This document shows positions 5,930 through 23,890 of a DNA stretch of 24,271 nucleotides, piece by piece. This stretch comes from a virus: positions 1 to 24,271 of IMG/VR virus record IMGVR_UViG_3300022868_000096; one strand, 5' to 3'. Each line of letters begins with the position of its first letter. Within the stretch, counting starts at the first letter, position 1. The position numbers were made by a program, and so were the translations under genes. The notes under the pieces are model-generated. The model made no database searches, was not told the origin of the DNA, and worked only from the letters and a program-made list of their open reading frames with translations.

Positions 5930-6053
5930 TTACAGAGGTTCGCTCCTCGTAAGAGATAGGTATTTTACAGGGTAAGCCCAACCCGATGATTGTGTTAGTA
6001 TTACGACCACTAACGAGGTGATACAGTAAGGGACAAATATCTTGATCCCCTAC
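5930..6053 (-). ncRNA. Structured leader RNA upstream of decoration/capsid genes
   Basis: Four hairpins can be drawn by hand: 6026-6053 (8-bp GTAGGGGA-type stem plus CAA/TTG and a 5-nt loop); 5994-6014 (GTTAGT/ACTAAC); 5970-5984 (GGGT/ACCC); and 5930-5952 (TTAC/GTAA plus GAGG/CCTC with hexaloop AGCGAA and one bulge). In addition CCTCGT at 5945-5950 is fully complementary to ACGAGG at 6013-6018, which would break two of these hairpins. This choice of folds, followed by a terminator-like stem, resembles a conditional attenuator or cis-regulatory RNA. There is no convincing protein-coding frame here. It is not a tRNA: no TTCGAAT-type arm. Confidence 0.5.
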
Positions 6054-6073
6054 TATAATGCTCGTTATAAATT

Positions 6074-6478
6074 TTACTTCTTATTCTCACTCTTTAATTG
6101 TATCACATCTTCAATGTTTTGTAAAGTTAAATCTCTAATGTTATCCACTCCAAAAACTTTACACTCTGCAATAGAAAAACTTTCTGCCATTTTATCATTA
6201 ATATAATTATTAGTATTATCAAATGCAACTTGTGCTACTTTCATAATATACATAACATCAACAAATTTAATGTTTTTATCTAAAAATAAATGTGCTATTT
6301 CTAAATAGATTGGAGCATAAGTTTTTTGTAATGCTTCTGCTGATTCGTGATTAGCTAAAGATGGTTTATGTTTAGCAATGATTTGAATTATCTCTTCTGC
6401 TATAGGAACACATCTTTTATCTTGGTCAGACATTTTTGTCTTAATTCTTTTTTCTTGTTGTTTAGTTAATTTATCCAT
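6074..6478 (-). CDS. Hypothetical helical protein in the head module
   Basis: 134 residues, Lys/Glu-rich and predicted all-helical by eye: MDKLTKQQEKRIKTKMSDQD at the start, then IAEEIIQIIAKHKPSLANHE and VDVMYIMKVAQVAFDNTNNY. There are no Cys pairs, membrane segment or catalytic motif. It starts 4 bp after the preceding gene's stop and lies between scaffold-like and decoration genes, suggesting a head accessory protein, but its family is not recognised. It is the last gene before the structured leader and terminator-like hairpin at 5887-6053. Confidence 0.65.
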   Translation of the reverse strand: MDKLTKQQEKRIKTKMSDQDKRCVPIAEEIIQIIAKHKPSLANHESAEALQKTYAPIYLEIAHLFLDKNIKFVDVMYIMKVAQVAFDNTNNYINDKMAESFSIAECKVFGVDNIRDLTLQNIEDVIQLKSENKK

Positions 6479-12793: not shown

Positions 12794-13309
12794 TTAAGCT
12801 TCTTCGAAGTCTGCTTCTTTAACATTTTCGTTATCCTTATTAAGTTCATGGACAACTTCAGCAGCAGTTAGGGTTTTAATTGTAGTTACTTCACTCTTAT
12901 CAGTCCACCCTGCTATATTCTTTAACCAAGCAAAACATCCTGATGAATTTCTACCTGACAATAGACTTTGTTCCACAAGAGCAGTCAAATGAGTAAGAGC
13001 TTGTCTTATAACAGGAGCTACTATTGAATTATTATCTTTCATTATTTCTTTAAGGTTTTGCCAATTAGTACCAAGCGACAAGGCTAATCCACTTGAAGTA
13101 GGCATAAGCCCTTTTGACTGACAAAAGTTTAAGTAGCCTTCTATAGCAGCTTTCACTTCTTCAGGATTACTAAAAGTCAATTCAGTCTTAGGTTGAATTT
13201 TTGTTAGGAAGGGAGCATCGTCTACATCTTCAAAAATTAAATCTGGTGGTGTAGCCATATTCTCTTTAAACTCCACTAAGGACTTTTCATCTAAGTCGGA
13301 TTTGTTCAT
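12794..13309 (-). CDS. Terminase small subunit (TerS)
   Basis: 171 residues. After an acidic N-terminus come NPEEVKAAIEGYLNFCQSKG, then LMPTSSGLALSLGTNWQNLK, a helix-turn-helix typical of DNA-packaging small subunits ('p.t..gLa..lg...'). The middle helices (VIRQALTHLTALVEQSLLSG) form the oligomerisation core, and SSGCFAWLKNIAGWTDKSE closes it: 'g..f.LKn..gW.dk.e' is a signature of TerS. It recognises phage DNA and regulates TerL. Its ATG is directly after the stop of the metallopeptidase-like gene. The acidic tail (ELNKDNENVKEADFEEA) is probably flexible. Confidence 0.85.
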   Translation of the reverse strand: MNKSDLDEKSLVEFKENMATPPDLIFEDVDDAPFLTKIQPKTELTFSNPEEVKAAIEGYLNFCQSKGLMPTSSGLALSLGTNWQNLKEIMKDNNSIVAPVIRQALTHLTALVEQSLLSGRNSSGCFAWLKNIAGWTDKSEVTTIKTLTAAEVVHELNKDNENVKEADFEEA

Positions 13310-13689: not shown

Positions 13690-14202
13690 TTATATTTCTT
13701 TAAGTATTATATCTCTCGGTAAAAAATCACAACAATAATAAGATGTATTAAAAGTTATTTTATTATTTATTTTTCCATCAATTTGCTTAAAATTAATTCT
13801 TTTATCTAATAATAAAAGTTGCATATTTCTATTAAAATTTTTATATACCATTTTACTAGACCTATCATTGAGCCAATTAATATTCATTAACAATGCAAAA
13901 GGTTTATTAAAACTTAATGCTCTTTCAAAATATAATCTTTTATTTGTGAAGGGTGGGTTACTAATTATTATATCCCATTCTTTAGGTTCATATTCAAAAA
14001 AATCTTGATTAGTTTCTATATGACTATATATTACTTTATTAGTTTTAGATATTTCTTTAACAAAATTACTATCTTTAGTATCAAAAGGACACCAAATAAT
14101 TTTATCTTTAGGTATATATTTTATAATAGGCAGAACTCCTTCTAACGGAGTATAGCATTCATCATTTTTACCTTTTGAATAAAGTATTTTATTGCTGTCC
14201 AT
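13690..14202 (-). CDS. Methyltransferase-like protein, degenerate SAM site
   Basis: 170 residues with NPPF at 82-85 (motif IV of N6-adenine methyltransferases) preceded by WDIIIS, and an N-terminal NDECYTPLEGVLPIIKYI that resembles the DExYTP opening of phage adenine methyltransferases. The usual glycine-rich SAM motif I is replaced by IIWCPFDTKDSNFV (36-48). Relatives with this 'WCPFD..dSNFV...NPPF' layout occur in phages and are variously annotated, sometimes wrongly as nucleotidyltransferases; whether they methylate is unclear to me. First gene of the late operon, 39 bp downstream of the expected transcription start of the 14248-14276 promoter. Confidence 0.75.
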   Translation of the reverse strand: MDSNKILYSKGKNDECYTPLEGVLPIIKYIPKDKIIWCPFDTKDSNFVKEISKTNKVIYSHIETNQDFFEYEPKEWDIIISNPPFTNKRLYFERALSFNKPFALLMNINWLNDRSSKMVYKNFNRNMQLLLLDKRINFKQIDGKINNKITFNTSYYCCDFLPRDIILKEI

Positions 14203-14298: not shown

Positions 14299-14327
14299 TT
14301 GACAAAACTCGTGGCGTGGTATATACT
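14299..14327 (+). promoter_or_regulatory. Sigma-70 promoter for the lone HTH gene
   Basis: TTGACA (14299-14304), 17-nt spacer, TATACT (14322-14327); expected start near 14334, ten bases before ATG 14344. The -35 TTG could be read as a start codon in frame with the gene, which would wrongly extend it. Confidence 0.85.
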
Positions 14328-14343
14328 TACTATATTATTATTA

Positions 14344-14586
14344 ATGTATTATATGAAATTTACGGAACAACAATATCAGATTGGAGTAATGCTCGGTGAG
14401 AAGTATGAGGATTATGTAAAACGATGGTATGAAAAAGAATATAGTCCCTTGCAGATAAGTAATATGATCTATGACAAATGTAAGATAAGGATCACCAAGA
14501 GGAGTATACAACGCCATGTGCAAGATTGGGGGATAAGCAGAACTACCAAGCAATCCTTCGCAATTTATATGAAAAATAAGATATAG
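14344..14586 (+). CDS. Small HTH DNA-binding protein, paralogue of the HNH gene
   Basis: 80 residues from ATG 14344 (or 77 from 14353). The protein is a single HTH-like module: YVKRWYEKEYSPLQISNMIY, then KCKIRITKRSIQRHVQDWGI. It aligns with residues 27-87 of the neighbouring HNH protein (YVKFVLDFYQNKNMSGVEIA ... ITPRSIQRVVAKYG), sharing YVK, the I-T-x-R-SIQR recognition helix and a final Gly-x-x-R. Likely a regulator or a nuclease remnant that keeps only DNA binding. The gene is less AT-rich than the early genes and has its own promoter and terminator, indicating an acquired cassette. Its stop TAG lies inside the terminator stem. Confidence 0.75.
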   Translation: MYYMKFTEQQYQIGVMLGEKYEDYVKRWYEKEYSPLQISNMIYDKCKIRITKRSIQRHVQDWGISRTTKQSFAIYMKNKI

Positions 14587-14607
14587 TAGAAATACTATAT
14601 TTTTTTT
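14581..14607 (+). terminator. Intrinsic terminator overlapping the HTH gene stop codon
   Basis: Stem ATATAGTA (14581-14588) and TACTATAT (14593-14600) closed by a GAAA tetraloop, followed by seven more Ts. The gene's TAG (14584-14586) is in the 5' arm. An identical copy follows the HNH gene 620 bp downstream. Confidence 0.85.
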
Positions 14608-14608
14608 A

Positions 14609-14617
14609 TGTGGATAA
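14609..14617 (-). other. Perfect DnaA-box sequence
   Basis: TGTGGATAA on the plus strand is the complement of TTATCCACA, the consensus DnaA box. It lies between the first terminator and the promoter of the HNH gene. A second copy in the opposite orientation is at 16122-16130. Binding by host DnaA is inference. Confidence 0.45.
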
Positions 14618-14633
14618 GTATTAGTGTCGTGTA

Positions 14634-14662
14634 TTGACAAGTGCGACATAGTGTGTTATAGT
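14634..14662 (+). promoter_or_regulatory. Sigma-70 promoter for the HNH gene
   Basis: TTGACA (14634-14639), 17-nt spacer, TATAGT (14657-14662); expected start near 14669, 31 bp before ATG 14700. The flanks GTCG (14626-14629) and CGAC (14644-14647) form an inverted repeat around the -35 box and may be an operator. Confidence 0.85.
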
Positions 14663-14699
14663 TACTACATAATTTAACTATACTACTAACAACAACAAT

Positions 14700-15206
14700 A
14701 TGAGTATGCACAAATGTGCTAAGCACAAACAAATCTTTATTGCTTTGAATAAAGACGTAGGATTCGAATATCCCAACTATGTTAAATTTGTTTTAGACTT
14801 CTATCAAAACAAAAATATGAGTGGGGTAGAAATAGCAGAATATATAGAGCAAAATACGGGGATTGAGATAACGCCACGTAGTATACAGCGAGTTGTAGCT
14901 AAATATGGGAGAGTTAGGAGTGTAAAAGAAGCTTATAACCTAGCAATTAAAAGGGGGAGAGTAACTTGGAAGTGTAAAGACTTCAAATATAAGAGATCCC
15001 GACTAAGTAATAAGCTACGCTATGCAATACTTAAACGAGATAACTCCAAATGCGTTTTATGTGGTAGGGGGATAGAAGATGGTATAATGTTACAAGTGGA
15101 GCACGTAACGCCTGTGAGCAAAGGGGGTCTAAGTAATCCTGACAATTTAAGAACCTTGTGCCATGAGTGTAATAAAGGCAAACAATTAAGCGAAAACGAA
15201 ATATAG
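14700..15206 (+). CDS. HTH-HNH endonuclease, homing-type
   Basis: 168 residues. Residues 25-85 are an HTH module paralogous to the protein encoded just upstream. Residues 105-160 are a zinc-stabilised HNH nuclease: KRDNSKCVLCG (Cys 118, 121), LQVEHVTPVSKGG (catalytic His 135), LSNPDNLRTLCHECNKGKQ (Asn 149; Cys 154, 157). Nucleases of this build make site-specific cuts and often behave as free-standing homing endonucleases. It is a single-gene transcription unit with a strong promoter and an intrinsic terminator, and is less AT-rich than the early genes, both signs of mobility. A role in DNA packaging is less likely because it is not in the late operon. Confidence 0.9.
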   Translation: MSMHKCAKHKQIFIALNKDVGFEYPNYVKFVLDFYQNKNMSGVEIAEYIEQNTGIEITPRSIQRVVAKYGRVRSVKEAYNLAIKRGRVTWKCKDFKYKRSRLSNKLRYAILKRDNSKCVLCGRGIEDGIMLQVEHVTPVSKGGLSNPDNLRTLCHECNKGKQLSENEI

Positions 15207-15227
15207 TAGAAATACTATATTTTTTTT
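15201..15227 (+). terminator. Intrinsic terminator overlapping the HNH gene stop codon
   Basis: Identical to the terminator at 14581: ATATAGTA/TACTATAT stem, GAAA loop, then Ts. TAG at 15204-15206 lies in the 5' arm. Identity runs for 29 bases (15201-15229 versus 14581-14609). Confidence 0.85.
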
Positions 15228-15268
15228 ATAGTGTTTTTTGAAATTAGATATACGTGCAATGTGGTATA

Positions 15269-15310
15269 GGTGGGGGGAAAAATCGAGCTAAGAAAAGACC
15301 CACCCCCACC
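15269..15310 (+). other. GC-rich hairpin GGTGGGGG/CCCCCACC
   Basis: Eight perfect pairs (15269-15276 with 15303-15310) around a 26-nt A-rich loop, in strongly AT-rich DNA. The G-run on one strand and C-run on the other could also act as a replication or packaging signal. Function unknown. Confidence 0.6.
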
Positions 15311-15337
15311 CTTGCTCATTTAAAGCAATAAAAAGAT

Positions 15338-15365
15338 AAAAAAGCATCTTAACAGGTGCTTTTTT
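15338..15365. terminator. Bidirectional intrinsic terminator
   Basis: AAAAAAGCATC (15338-15348) pairs with GGTGCTTTTTT (15355-15365) through eleven pairs including one G-T, with loop TTAACA. A/T runs flank both sides so it can terminate in either direction. It backs up the terminator of the HNH gene. Confidence 0.75.
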
Positions 15366-15374
15366 GTGTATTTG

Positions 15375-15494
15375 GCTATGTTTAGCTCTTTTTTGTTTTT
15401 ATTGTATAGTATAGCAAGAGGAAGCGTCGTAAAATAAACATTTGGCGACGCCTATGATATACGACATCAAGCCTTGTTTATAGCTATGTTTAGC
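15375..15494. repeat. Two copies of the inverted repeat GCTATGTTTAGC
   Basis: Exact 12-bp copies at 15375-15386 and 15483-15494, 108 bp apart, each of the form GCTA-N4-TAGC. Possible operator or initiator site. Confidence 0.55.
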
Positions 15495-15551
15495 ACAATA
15501 TACCTAAATACTTGTAAGACATACCAAACAAGACTTAAAAAACAAGCTCTA

Positions 15552-15567
15552 AAATTGACTTGTAAGC
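15552..15567 (+). repeat. Partial copy of the early-gene hairpin repeat
   Basis: AAATTGACTTGTAAGC is exactly repeated at 16996-17011, inside the second hairpin repeat between early genes. Only half of the hairpin is present here. Confidence 0.6.
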
Positions 15568-15822
15568 GTTTTATTTCCAATAGTTGATATGTTTATATCA
15601 TTACTCAAACGATATAATACAAGTGATATTACTCTGACAAAGTCAAACAAAAAGTATAACTAGTTTTATATATATTTTAAAAGTTATAAGAATAAAAAAA
15701 TATCAAACAGTTTGAAAAAATTAGCTGAAGTGTCGTATAAGTTTTAAATCAATTTTATTGCTAATTTAAGTCCTCATTATTATAATATAACCCATATAAC
15801 CGTGCTACTCTGACCGCGTTAT

Positions 15823-15838
15823 CAAGGTTATAACCTTG
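15823..15838. promoter_or_regulatory. 16-bp perfect palindrome, candidate operator
   Basis: CAAGGTTATAACCTTG is a perfect palindrome. Its half-site TTATAACCTT recurs at 15849-15858, and AAGGTTATAA recurs at 17027-17036. It looks like a dimeric regulator's binding site; the small HTH protein nearby is one candidate binder, by proximity only. Confidence 0.55.
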
Positions 15839-16121
15839 TGATGAATTTTTATAACCTTATACTTGGAACAGGATGGTATAGTAATAGTATAAATATATCA
15901 TAACTTCACGATAAATACCCTAAACATAACATATCTTAACAATACACAATTTTGCGACGCTTCACAATCATTTTTAAGACTTTTATATAATAGAGTTGAT
16001 ATAGTGTTCATCTTTTATTATAGACTAGATCCTGATACAAAAAAACACCACTTTTTGAACTTTTTGGCGGTATTATATATATGTTTTTTTGCTATTGATT
16101 GATTGATAATAATATACAAAG

Positions 16122-16130
16122 TTATCCACA
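16122..16130 (+). other. Perfect DnaA-box sequence upstream of early promoter
   Basis: TTATCCACA, nine bases before the -35 of the early promoter and opposite in orientation to the copy at 14609-14617. Confidence 0.5.
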
Positions 16131-16138
16131 TATAACAC

Positions 16139-16167
16139 TTGACAACATATAATATCTATGCTATAAT
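16139..16167 (+). promoter_or_regulatory. Consensus early promoter
   Basis: TTGACA (16139-16144), 17-nt spacer, TATAAT (16162-16167): a perfect match to sigma-70 consensus. Expected start near 16174. It probably drives the whole run of small genes to about 20089. Confidence 0.95.
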
Positions 16168-16173
16168 AAACTA

Positions 16174-16332
16174 TGTAAGAGATTAAGACTTTACATAAAT
16201 AGTTATTTAATAACTATATAGAGAGTATAAAGATATAATCGGCTCTGGCTGATATTATCTTTATACTTTCACCCGTAAAGTATACTATTATCTAACATTA
16301 TAAATCAATTTAATTAACTAATCATAAACATT
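16174..16332 (+). promoter_or_regulatory. Structured early leader with competing hairpins
   Basis: Arm 1 AGTATAAAGATA (16224-16235) pairs perfectly with arm 2 TATCTTTATACT (16256-16267), 12 bp, with GGCTCTGGCT in the loop. But TATACTTT (16262-16269), most of it inside arm 2, also pairs perfectly with AAAGTATA (16277-16284) around CACCCGT. The two folds exclude each other. A TAGTTAT/ATAACTA hairpin precedes. No T-run follows, so control would act on translation, processing or RNA stability, or be Rho- or protein-dependent. Confidence 0.55.
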
Positions 16333-16473
16333 ATGAAAACATTAAAACAAAGAAAAGCTTTTGATAAATACCAAAAAGCACAAAATAAATACTATATAGC
16401 ACTTGCTATAAATAAAAGAAATGAAAAAAAACTACTTGATAAAGTAAAAGAATTAAGAAAAAACTTAAAATAA
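16333..16473 (+). CDS. Small basic early protein (46 aa)
   Basis: First gene behind the early promoter: MKTLKQRKAFDKYQKAQNKY and then IALAINKRNEKKLLDKVKEL. It is very Lys-rich and helical, probably nucleic-acid binding or a host-takeover peptide. The ATG follows CATAAACATT with no Shine-Dalgarno. No family recognised. Confidence 0.6.
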   Translation: MKTLKQRKAFDKYQKAQNKYYIALAINKRNEKKLLDKVKELRKNLK

Positions 16474-16507
16474 ATAAACAATACATAATTTAATTAAACC
16501 TTTTTTA

Positions 16508-16535
16508 CTTGCTTATAACATAAATTACAAGCAAG
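16508..16535 (+). repeat. Intergenic hairpin repeat, copy 1
   Basis: CTTGCTTATAA (16508-16518) pairs with TTACAAGCAAG (16525-16535) with one mismatch and a 6-nt loop. A second copy lies at 16987-17014 after the next-but-one gene. Both are followed by ATAAAA. Confidence 0.65.
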
Positions 16536-16572
16536 ATAAAACAGATTTTAACTGTTATAACATATAATTTAT

Positions 16573-23326: not shown

Positions 23327-23890
23327 ATGAATCAAGGTGGAAAATTAGCTGGTGGAAATCCAGCAAGAGGTAGGGTAAAAAATGATTACTATGCTACTCA
23401 TTCTGACAGTACAAAAGCCCTTTTAGAAGTAGAAGAAATTTTATACCCAGCCTTAGAACCTGCTTGTGGAGAAGGACATATAAGCAAATTATTATGTGAA
23501 AATGATACAGGTTCTTACGATTTAATATATAGAGGTTATGGAAAAGGTGGAATTGATTTTTTAAAACACGATTTTGAGTTTCCTTATAATACAGTAATTA
23601 CTAATCCTCCTTTTAAATACTTTCAAGAGTTTGTAGAAAAAGCATTAAAGATAGCTAACAAGAAAGTTATTATGTTTGGAAAACTGCAAGCATTAGAAGG
23701 ACAAAAAAGAGCAACCTTTTTAGAAACAACACCACTAAAGACTGTCTATGTTTTTAAAAAAAGACAACAACCAATGAGAAATGGAAAAGAATTAGATGAT
23801 AATGGTAAAAAGATGGGTAGTACAATGGCTTTTGCTTGGTTTGTCTGGGAAATTGGATATGAAGGTAGTCCTATAATTAAATGGATTTAA
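23327..23890 (+). CDS. N6-adenine methyltransferase-like protein
   Basis: 187 residues with motif I EPACGEG (44-50), which binds SAM, and motif IV ITNPPF (91-96), as in N6-adenine or N-type methyltransferases of phages. The N-terminal KNDYYATHSDSTKALLEVEE is the known 'DfY.Tp...t..ll' opening with His for Pro. The C-terminal AFAWFVWEIGYEGSPIIKWI is the usual end. It probably methylates DNA or possibly another target, perhaps to evade restriction. Preceded by TATAACAATATG. It is flanked by the 65-bp direct repeat, so this gene or the block around it was recently moved or duplicated. Confidence 0.85.
   Translation: MNQGGKLAGGNPARGRVKNDYYATHSDSTKALLEVEEILYPALEPACGEGHISKLLCENDTGSYDLIYRGYGKGGIDFLKHDFEFPYNTVITNPPFKYFQEFVEKALKIANKKVIMFGKLQALEGQKRATFLETTPLKTVYVFKKRQQPMRNGKELDDNGKKMGSTMAFAWFVWEIGYEGSPIIKWI

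What the first reader, a model, noticed from the sequence alone, without database searches (positions are those of the whole stretch)
14299..15229. Twin HTH and HTH-HNH cassettes, each a complete transcription unit
Two neighbouring plus-strand genes have separate near-consensus promoters (14299, 14634), paralogous HTH modules (shared YVK, R-SIQR, Gly-x-x-R) and an identical 29-nt terminator. One gene is HTH only; the other is HTH plus zinc HNH nuclease. Both are less AT-rich than the early genes. This looks like a mobile nuclease cassette with a duplicated, nuclease-free partner that may regulate or restrain it, or be a homing remnant kept as a repressor.
Basis: partly seen in the sequence, partly recalled or inferred. 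Interest (0 to 1): 0.7.

Follow-up and report, generated by a model that had tools for sequence, protein, structure and literature searches.

The report
HTH-HNH nuclease plus nuclease-free relative
A small AT-rich phage carries a DNA-cutting gene next to a stripped-down relative that keeps only the DNA-binding part; the family turns out to live mainly in ultra-small (Patescibacteria) genomes, wedged between the chromosome-terminus site dif and the recombinase that acts on it, which gives a possible host for the phage and a testable repressor/homing model.

Summary
Two plus-strand genes (14353-14586, 77 aa; 14700-15206, 168 aa) each have an 11/12 sigma70-type promoter and share an identical 29-nt hairpin-plus-T8 terminator. 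The shared HTH module is real: a profile built without window sequences finds both (E 1e-19 and 1e-14; next frame 0.5). The second protein has an intact zinc HNH domain.

No library family covers the HTH part. The intact relatives found are chromosomal genes of Ca. Falkowbacteria-like Patescibacteria, always between a single dif-like site at the GC-skew maximum (5-1,700 bp away in four genomes) and the adjacent xer gene; they are present, decayed or absent there, as expected of an invading homing-type gene. One is a fused HTH-HTH-HNH. A second phage has an HTH-HNH with a catalytically dead HNH but a kept HTH.

Both phages share a motif (AGYGTCGYA) around these genes; all six window copies lie at 14624-15960, two inverted across the nuclease promoter's -35 box. 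I infer a free-standing HTH-HNH homing-type nuclease with a nuclease-free relative acting as repressor (I-TevI-like logic). 'Recent duplicate' and 'always a block' are not supported: no other genome found has the pair.

The parts
14299..14327 (+). promoter of the HTH-only gene, TTGACA-17-TATACT
   Evidence: 11/12 consensus match
14353..14586 (+). HTH-only gene, 77 aa (alternative start ATG 14389)
   Evidence: ORF; family HTH profile without window sequences E 1.9e-14; four-helix AlphaFold2 model, pLDDT 77
14581..14609 (+). terminator copy 1 (ATATAGTA-GAAA-TACTATAT-T8), contains the stop codon
   Evidence: identical 29 nt to 15201-15229; z -4.9
14609..14617 (-). perfect DnaA box TTATCCACA upstream of the HNH promoter
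   Evidence: 2 in window, 0.32 expected; same box lies upstream of most bacterial dif/xer promoters
14624..14631 (+). operator-like motif copy (AGTGTCGTG), left arm of inverted pair around the -35 box
14634..14662 (+). promoter of the HNH gene, TTGACA-17-TATAGT with TG extension
   Evidence: 11/12
14642..14649 (-). operator-like motif copy (ATGTCGCA), right arm of inverted pair around the -35 box
14657..14682 (.). interrupted palindrome TATAGTTA-N10-TAACTATA overlapping the -10 box
   Evidence: read directly; its RNA fold is not above chance (z -0.01); no match to the bacterial dif
14700..15206 (+). HTH-HNH gene, 168 aa
   Evidence: Pfam HNH 2.4e-10
14757..14960 (+). HTH module of the HNH gene (residues 20-87)
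   Evidence: family HTH profile E 1.7e-19
15051..15182 (+). zinc HNH nuclease domain (residues 118-161)
   Evidence: PF01844 and PF14279
15201..15229 (+). terminator copy 2, contains the stop codon of the HNH gene
15424..15431 (+). operator-like motif copy (AGCGTCGTAAAAT)
15460..15467 (-). operator-like motif copy (ATGTCGTATA)
15730..15737 (+). operator-like motif copy (AAGTGTCGTATA, 12 nt shared with phage L225)
15953..15960 (-). operator-like motif copy (AAGCGTCGCAAAAT)

Best explanation
The 14700-15206 gene is a free-standing, homing-type HTH-HNH endonuclease of a so far unnamed family shared by Patescibacteria chromosomes and a few phages. Its HTH module (ITxRSIQR recognition helix, followed by a conserved R...A-x-N-L-A-I-K-x-G-R tail) finds DNA and its zinc HNH domain cuts it. 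The 14353-14586 gene is an old nuclease-free member of the same family, kept as a DNA-binding protein. It, and perhaps the nuclease's own HTH, most likely binds AGYGTCGYA sites in the 14.6-16.0 kb intergenic region, including an inverted pair across the -35 box of the nuclease promoter, and so limits nuclease expression. Each gene is its own transcription unit (promoter, gene, terminator). The identical terminators bracket the promoter-plus-HNH unit 14610-15229, so it could have entered or could leave by recombination between them. Shown by sequence: family, intact catalytic residues, transcription-unit anatomy, motif clustering, patchy decaying distribution of relatives. Inferred: DNA target, repression, homing, route of entry, Patescibacteria host.
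For: Independent HTH profile finds both window proteins. Bacterial HTH-HNH relatives about 39-43% identical over full length (found). At one chromosomal junction they are intact (G376, G238, G407, G001, G177), decayed (G333, G398, G401) or absent (G275, G399, G406): the life cycle of an invading homing-type gene. Phage L225 has the family HTH with the catalytic H, N and N of the HNH replaced (VDF, EDL, ECL) and no Pfam HNH match: nuclease lost, HTH kept. Motif: 6 of 6 window copies in 14624-15960, 0.26 expected; a pattern derived from L225 alone occurs 3 times in the window against 0.18 expected, reached in 1 of 400 shuffles; absent from 62 kb of five TerL-related viruses without the HTH gene; overlaps the promoter of the HTH-HNH gene in both phages. 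Precedent: I-TevI, an HTH-bearing homing endonuclease, autorepresses through an operator overlapping its promoter (PMC2988022).
Against: No binding or cleavage data. The motif was first noticed by comparing two phages, so its significance is partly after the fact, and it may belong to another factor. The small gene's own promoter has no copy. The bacterial family loci lack the multi-copy motif. No related phage with an empty site is available, so homing in phages is not shown. Shine-Dalgarno signals are weak for both genes.
Confidence: 0.45

Rival explanations
1. The HTH-only gene is a passive decay product or an unrelated small phage regulator (e.g. of the late/early switch) and has no regulatory tie to the nuclease; the HNH gene is simply a moron-like cargo gene.
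For: The two HTH modules are only about a third identical and the tree does not join them; no other carrier of the HTH-HNH found has a solo HTH gene; HTH-only decay remnants do occur in bacteria (G401).
Against: The small ORF is intact, has its own near-consensus promoter and terminator, and keeps the invariant family residues I-x-IT-x-RSIQR...G..R, unlike the stop-riddled G401 remnant; a motif pair sits on the HNH promoter.
Confidence: 0.3
2. The HTH-HNH acts in phage DNA processing: an HNH protein near the terminase helps packaging by nicking, as in several phages with an HNH gene next to the terminase; the HTH-only gene is a DNA-recognition partner.
For: The genes lie about 1.4 kb from the small terminase gene (12794-13309), and in phage L225 the gene lies between the large and small terminase genes. 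HNH-terminase cooperation is known from other phages (own knowledge, not tested).
Against: Opposite strand and own promoters; L225's copy is catalytically dead; bacterial members sit beside xer/dif, not terminase.
Confidence: 0.12
3. The family recognises the dif/xer region: bacterial members home into the dif-xer junction and the phage copies act on the host terminus (cleavage, decoy or capture of the Xer system).
For: All intact bacterial members lie directly between dif and xer; the phage HNH promoter has the same order of DnaA box, TTGACA-17-TATAxT and a palindrome starting at the -10 box.
Against: No dif match in the window at up to 3 mismatches; the phage palindrome is not similar in sequence; no integrase seen in the 24 kb.
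Confidence: 0.13

Closest known systems
I-TevI of phage T4 (PMC2988022)
   Same: HTH DNA-binding part plus nuclease part; operator overlapping its own promoter; separable binding function
   Different: GIY-YIG nuclease inside a group I intron; a single protein does both jobs; here HNH, free-standing, and a separate nuclease-free relative
Free-standing HNH homing endonucleases of phages (HNH PHROGs such as 589 and 14314)
   Same: zinc HNH domain, separate small gene with own promoter and terminator, patchy distribution
   Different: N-terminal HTH not covered significantly by Pfam, PHROGs or NCBIfam; bacterial copies fixed between dif and xer
Patescibacteria HTH-HNH genes at the dif-xer junction (L086, L195, L196, L197, L223)
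   Same: same full-length architecture, about 39-43% identity
   Different: chromosomal, upstream of and in operon-like order with xer; one with two HTH modules; no solo HTH gene found
IscB/Cas9-type HNH (NCBIfam guided_IscB 4.7e-15)
   Same: HNH domain similarity only
   Different: no RuvC or guide-RNA parts; match is far below the curated cut-off (55.5 against 175 bits)

Membership tests
HNH nuclease superfamily (PF01844) | CxxC...H...N...CxxCN zinc HNH motif above gathering score | tested here: met
   40.8 bits against cut-off 21.4; C118, C121, H135, N149, C154, C157, N158 present
HNH nuclease superfamily (PF01844) | DNA cleavage | not testable with these tools
   needs biochemistry
Free-standing homing endonuclease | separate gene with DNA-binding plus nuclease domain | tested here: met
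Free-standing homing endonuclease | occupied and empty alleles at the same site in relatives | tested here: inconclusive
   met for bacterial relatives at dif-xer; no close relative of the phage was found to test the window
Free-standing homing endonuclease | copying into an empty allele after site-specific cutting | not testable with these tools
   needs crosses or cleavage assays
I-TevI-like autorepression | binding site overlapping own promoter | tested here: inconclusive
   enriched motif pair flanks the -35 box; what binds it is unknown
HTH-HNH family of this report | HTH module matching a profile built without the window | tested here: met
   E 1.7e-19 (HNH gene) and 1.9e-14 (small gene)
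IscB / RNA-guided nuclease | RuvC and guide-RNA binding parts | tested here: not met
   168 aa; match limited to residues 95-164 and below the curated cut-off
Xer-integrating element (IMEX) | dif-like attachment site in the element | tested here: not met
   no match to the Falkowbacteria-type dif in the window at up to 3 mismatches; a dif of another host lineage was not tested

The most novel reading that the evidence does not exclude
A selfish HTH-HNH family targets the dif-xer junction, the replication terminus of Patescibacteria; phages carry members and have split off nuclease-free or nuclease-dead versions as repressors of the nuclease or as binders of host or phage regulatory sites. The solo HTH in the window would be a naturally evolved restraint on a homing nuclease, encoded as a separate gene.
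Probability: 0.2. Interest if true: 0.75.

Novelty: new variant of a known kind. Interest (0 to 1): 0.5.

Why it matters
It ties an orphan phage to the barely accessible Patescibacteria through a shared gene family that the libraries searched do not describe; shows a homing-type nuclease gene repeatedly gained and decaying at the site where chromosome dimers are resolved; and offers a testable case of a nuclease gene with a separate nuclease-free relative, which bears on how phages tame homing nucleases. In passing it points to a dif site and a single-Xer system at the skew maximum in this bacterial group.

Tried and rejected
Megablast of the whole window against phages: no match. Small HTH against phages by tblastn: no match. 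Single-sequence queries and badly chosen patterns in viral contigs: nothing. HNH-only viral hits (L087-L157): HNH domain shared but no family HTH. Foldseek of the small model: best hits are small-terminase HTHs at E about 1, not significant; the HNH model was too poor to be informative. PADLOC defence hits are generic HNH matches. Rfam and tRNA scans empty. The palindrome in the HNH leader as an RNA structure: no better than shuffles. A dif-like attachment site in the phage: none. The HTH tree does not resolve the order of duplication. A TerL search of 381 Patescibacteria genomes gave five distant matches, not proof of host.

Full report
What is there. The window is an entire 24,271-base IMG/VR virus record: minus-strand late genes (terminase, portal-like, structural) on the left, plus-strand AT-rich early genes on the right, and the finding at their junction. 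The HTH-only ORF runs 14353-14586 and the HTH-HNH ORF 14700-15206. Promoters at 14299 and 14634 match 11 of 12 positions; weaker promoter-like sites in the region are at chance. The 29-nt terminator occurs exactly twice in the window, folds far better than shuffles and contains both stop codons. The terminator scan missed it because its stem is almost all A-U. GC is 35% and 36.5% against 25% for the early and 30% for the late region.

Homology of the two HTH modules. Direct alignment scores 82 against a shuffle mean of 25. A profile built only from bacterial and other-phage members finds the HNH gene at 1.7e-19 and the small gene at 1.9e-14, the next frame in the window being at 0.48. AlphaFold2 gives the same helix order for both, but fold searches had no significant hit. 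The modules are only about a third identical, and the small one is as far from the window HNH as from bacterial members; the tree is unresolved. So they are relatives, but a recent duplication in this phage is not shown. The identical terminators are then probably younger than the split of the genes (copied or homogenised), and they bracket the promoter-plus-HNH unit 14610-15229.

Relatives. A genome scan gave one full-length relative, in a Ca. Falkowbacteria MAG (L086; 39% over residues 7-165). Searching Patescibacteria genomes gave G177, G376 and G238 and G407. The intact copies lie directly upstream of a tyrosine recombinase gene and, where the contig reaches that far, downstream of an FtsQ/POTRA-type gene. 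In G177 the HNH stop overlaps the recombinase start. Of nine genomes in one family that carry this recombinase, three have the gene intact, three have remnants (G333 and G398 the HNH part, G401 the HTH part) and three lack it. G376 carries two HTH modules in front of one HNH; the first module matches the family at 2.9e-9. An HTH-only search of 381 genomes found no solo HTH gene.

The site. Just upstream, in every one of these eleven loci with or without the nuclease gene, lies a version of ATTGAGTATAA-TAACTC-TTACACTCAAT, an 11-6-11 dif-like site (0 to 6 mismatches in 28). It overlaps the -10 box of a promoter, in most loci with a DnaA box (TGTGGATAA) before it. It occurs once on each of four long contigs, and the cumulative GC-skew maximum falls 5 bp (G238), 255 bp (G333), 522 bp (G407) and 1,678 bp (G376) away. 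[quoted passage not shown] I read this as the dif site of a one-recombinase system, with the HTH-HNH gene invading between dif and xer. That reading is inference from position and sequence.

A second phage. IMGVR_UViG_3300001866_000016 (L225; L226 is the same virus) encodes a relative (5956-6438) between its large and small terminase genes. The HTH is well kept (DPRSIQRTIARMGVIRSPKEAFNLAIKRGR); the four cysteines remain, but the catalytic H, N and N are F, D and L, and Pfam no longer sees an HNH. Its promoter reads TTGACA-17-TACAAT (from the sequence). This is a natural case of the nuclease being lost while the DNA-binding part stays.

A shared motif. Intergenic DNA around the gene in L225 and in the window shares 12- and 13-mers beyond chance. 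The degenerate form RYGTCGYR occurs six times in the window, all at 14624-15960, against 0.26 expected in that stretch; in L225 it clusters around the HTH gene. A pattern taken from L225 alone hits the window three times (0.18 expected; 1 of 400 shuffles reaches 3), and is absent from five TerL-related viruses lacking the gene. In the window an inverted pair (14624+, 14642-) flanks the -35 box of the HNH promoter; in L225 one copy overlaps the -10 box. This is what an operator for the HTH proteins would look like, but other factors could bind it.

Mechanism. The most economical model is a homing-type HTH-HNH nuclease with a nuclease-free relative that binds the same class of sites and limits nuclease expression, comparable in logic to I-TevI autorepression (PMC2988022) but with two proteins. 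Shown: anatomy, family, catalytic residues, motif clustering, site-specific gain and decay in bacteria. Inferred: binding, repression, cutting, mobility in the phage, and a Patescibacteria host.

Noticed in passing
L196:4743-4770 and the same element in L197, L218-L224, L086, L195: A single-copy dif-like 28-mer ATTGAGTATAATAACTCTTACACTCAAT directly upstream of a lone Xer-type recombinase gene, at the cumulative GC-skew maximum (5 bp away in G238) in Falkowbacteria-like genomes; it overlaps the promoter of the operon.
   Followed up: yes
L196:4786-5508: G376 protein with two tandem HTH modules fused to one HNH domain, a fused counterpart of the window's split pair.
   Followed up: partly
window 14609-14617 and 16122-16130: Two perfect DnaA boxes (TTATCCACA), each shortly upstream of a strong promoter (14634; 12/12 promoter at 16139), as in the bacterial dif-xer promoters.
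   Followed up: partly
window 15230-16570: A 1.3-kb non-coding region with many inverted repeats, motif copies and a perfect-consensus promoter at 16139, possibly an origin or control region.
   Followed up: no
window 13690-14202 and 23327-23890: Two short EcoRI-type adenine methyltransferase-like proteins (PHROG 799, E 2e-31 and 4e-55), each covering only part of the profile.
   Followed up: no
L225:5956-6438: Phage HTH-HNH relative with a catalytically dead HNH domain that keeps its four cysteines.
   Followed up: yes
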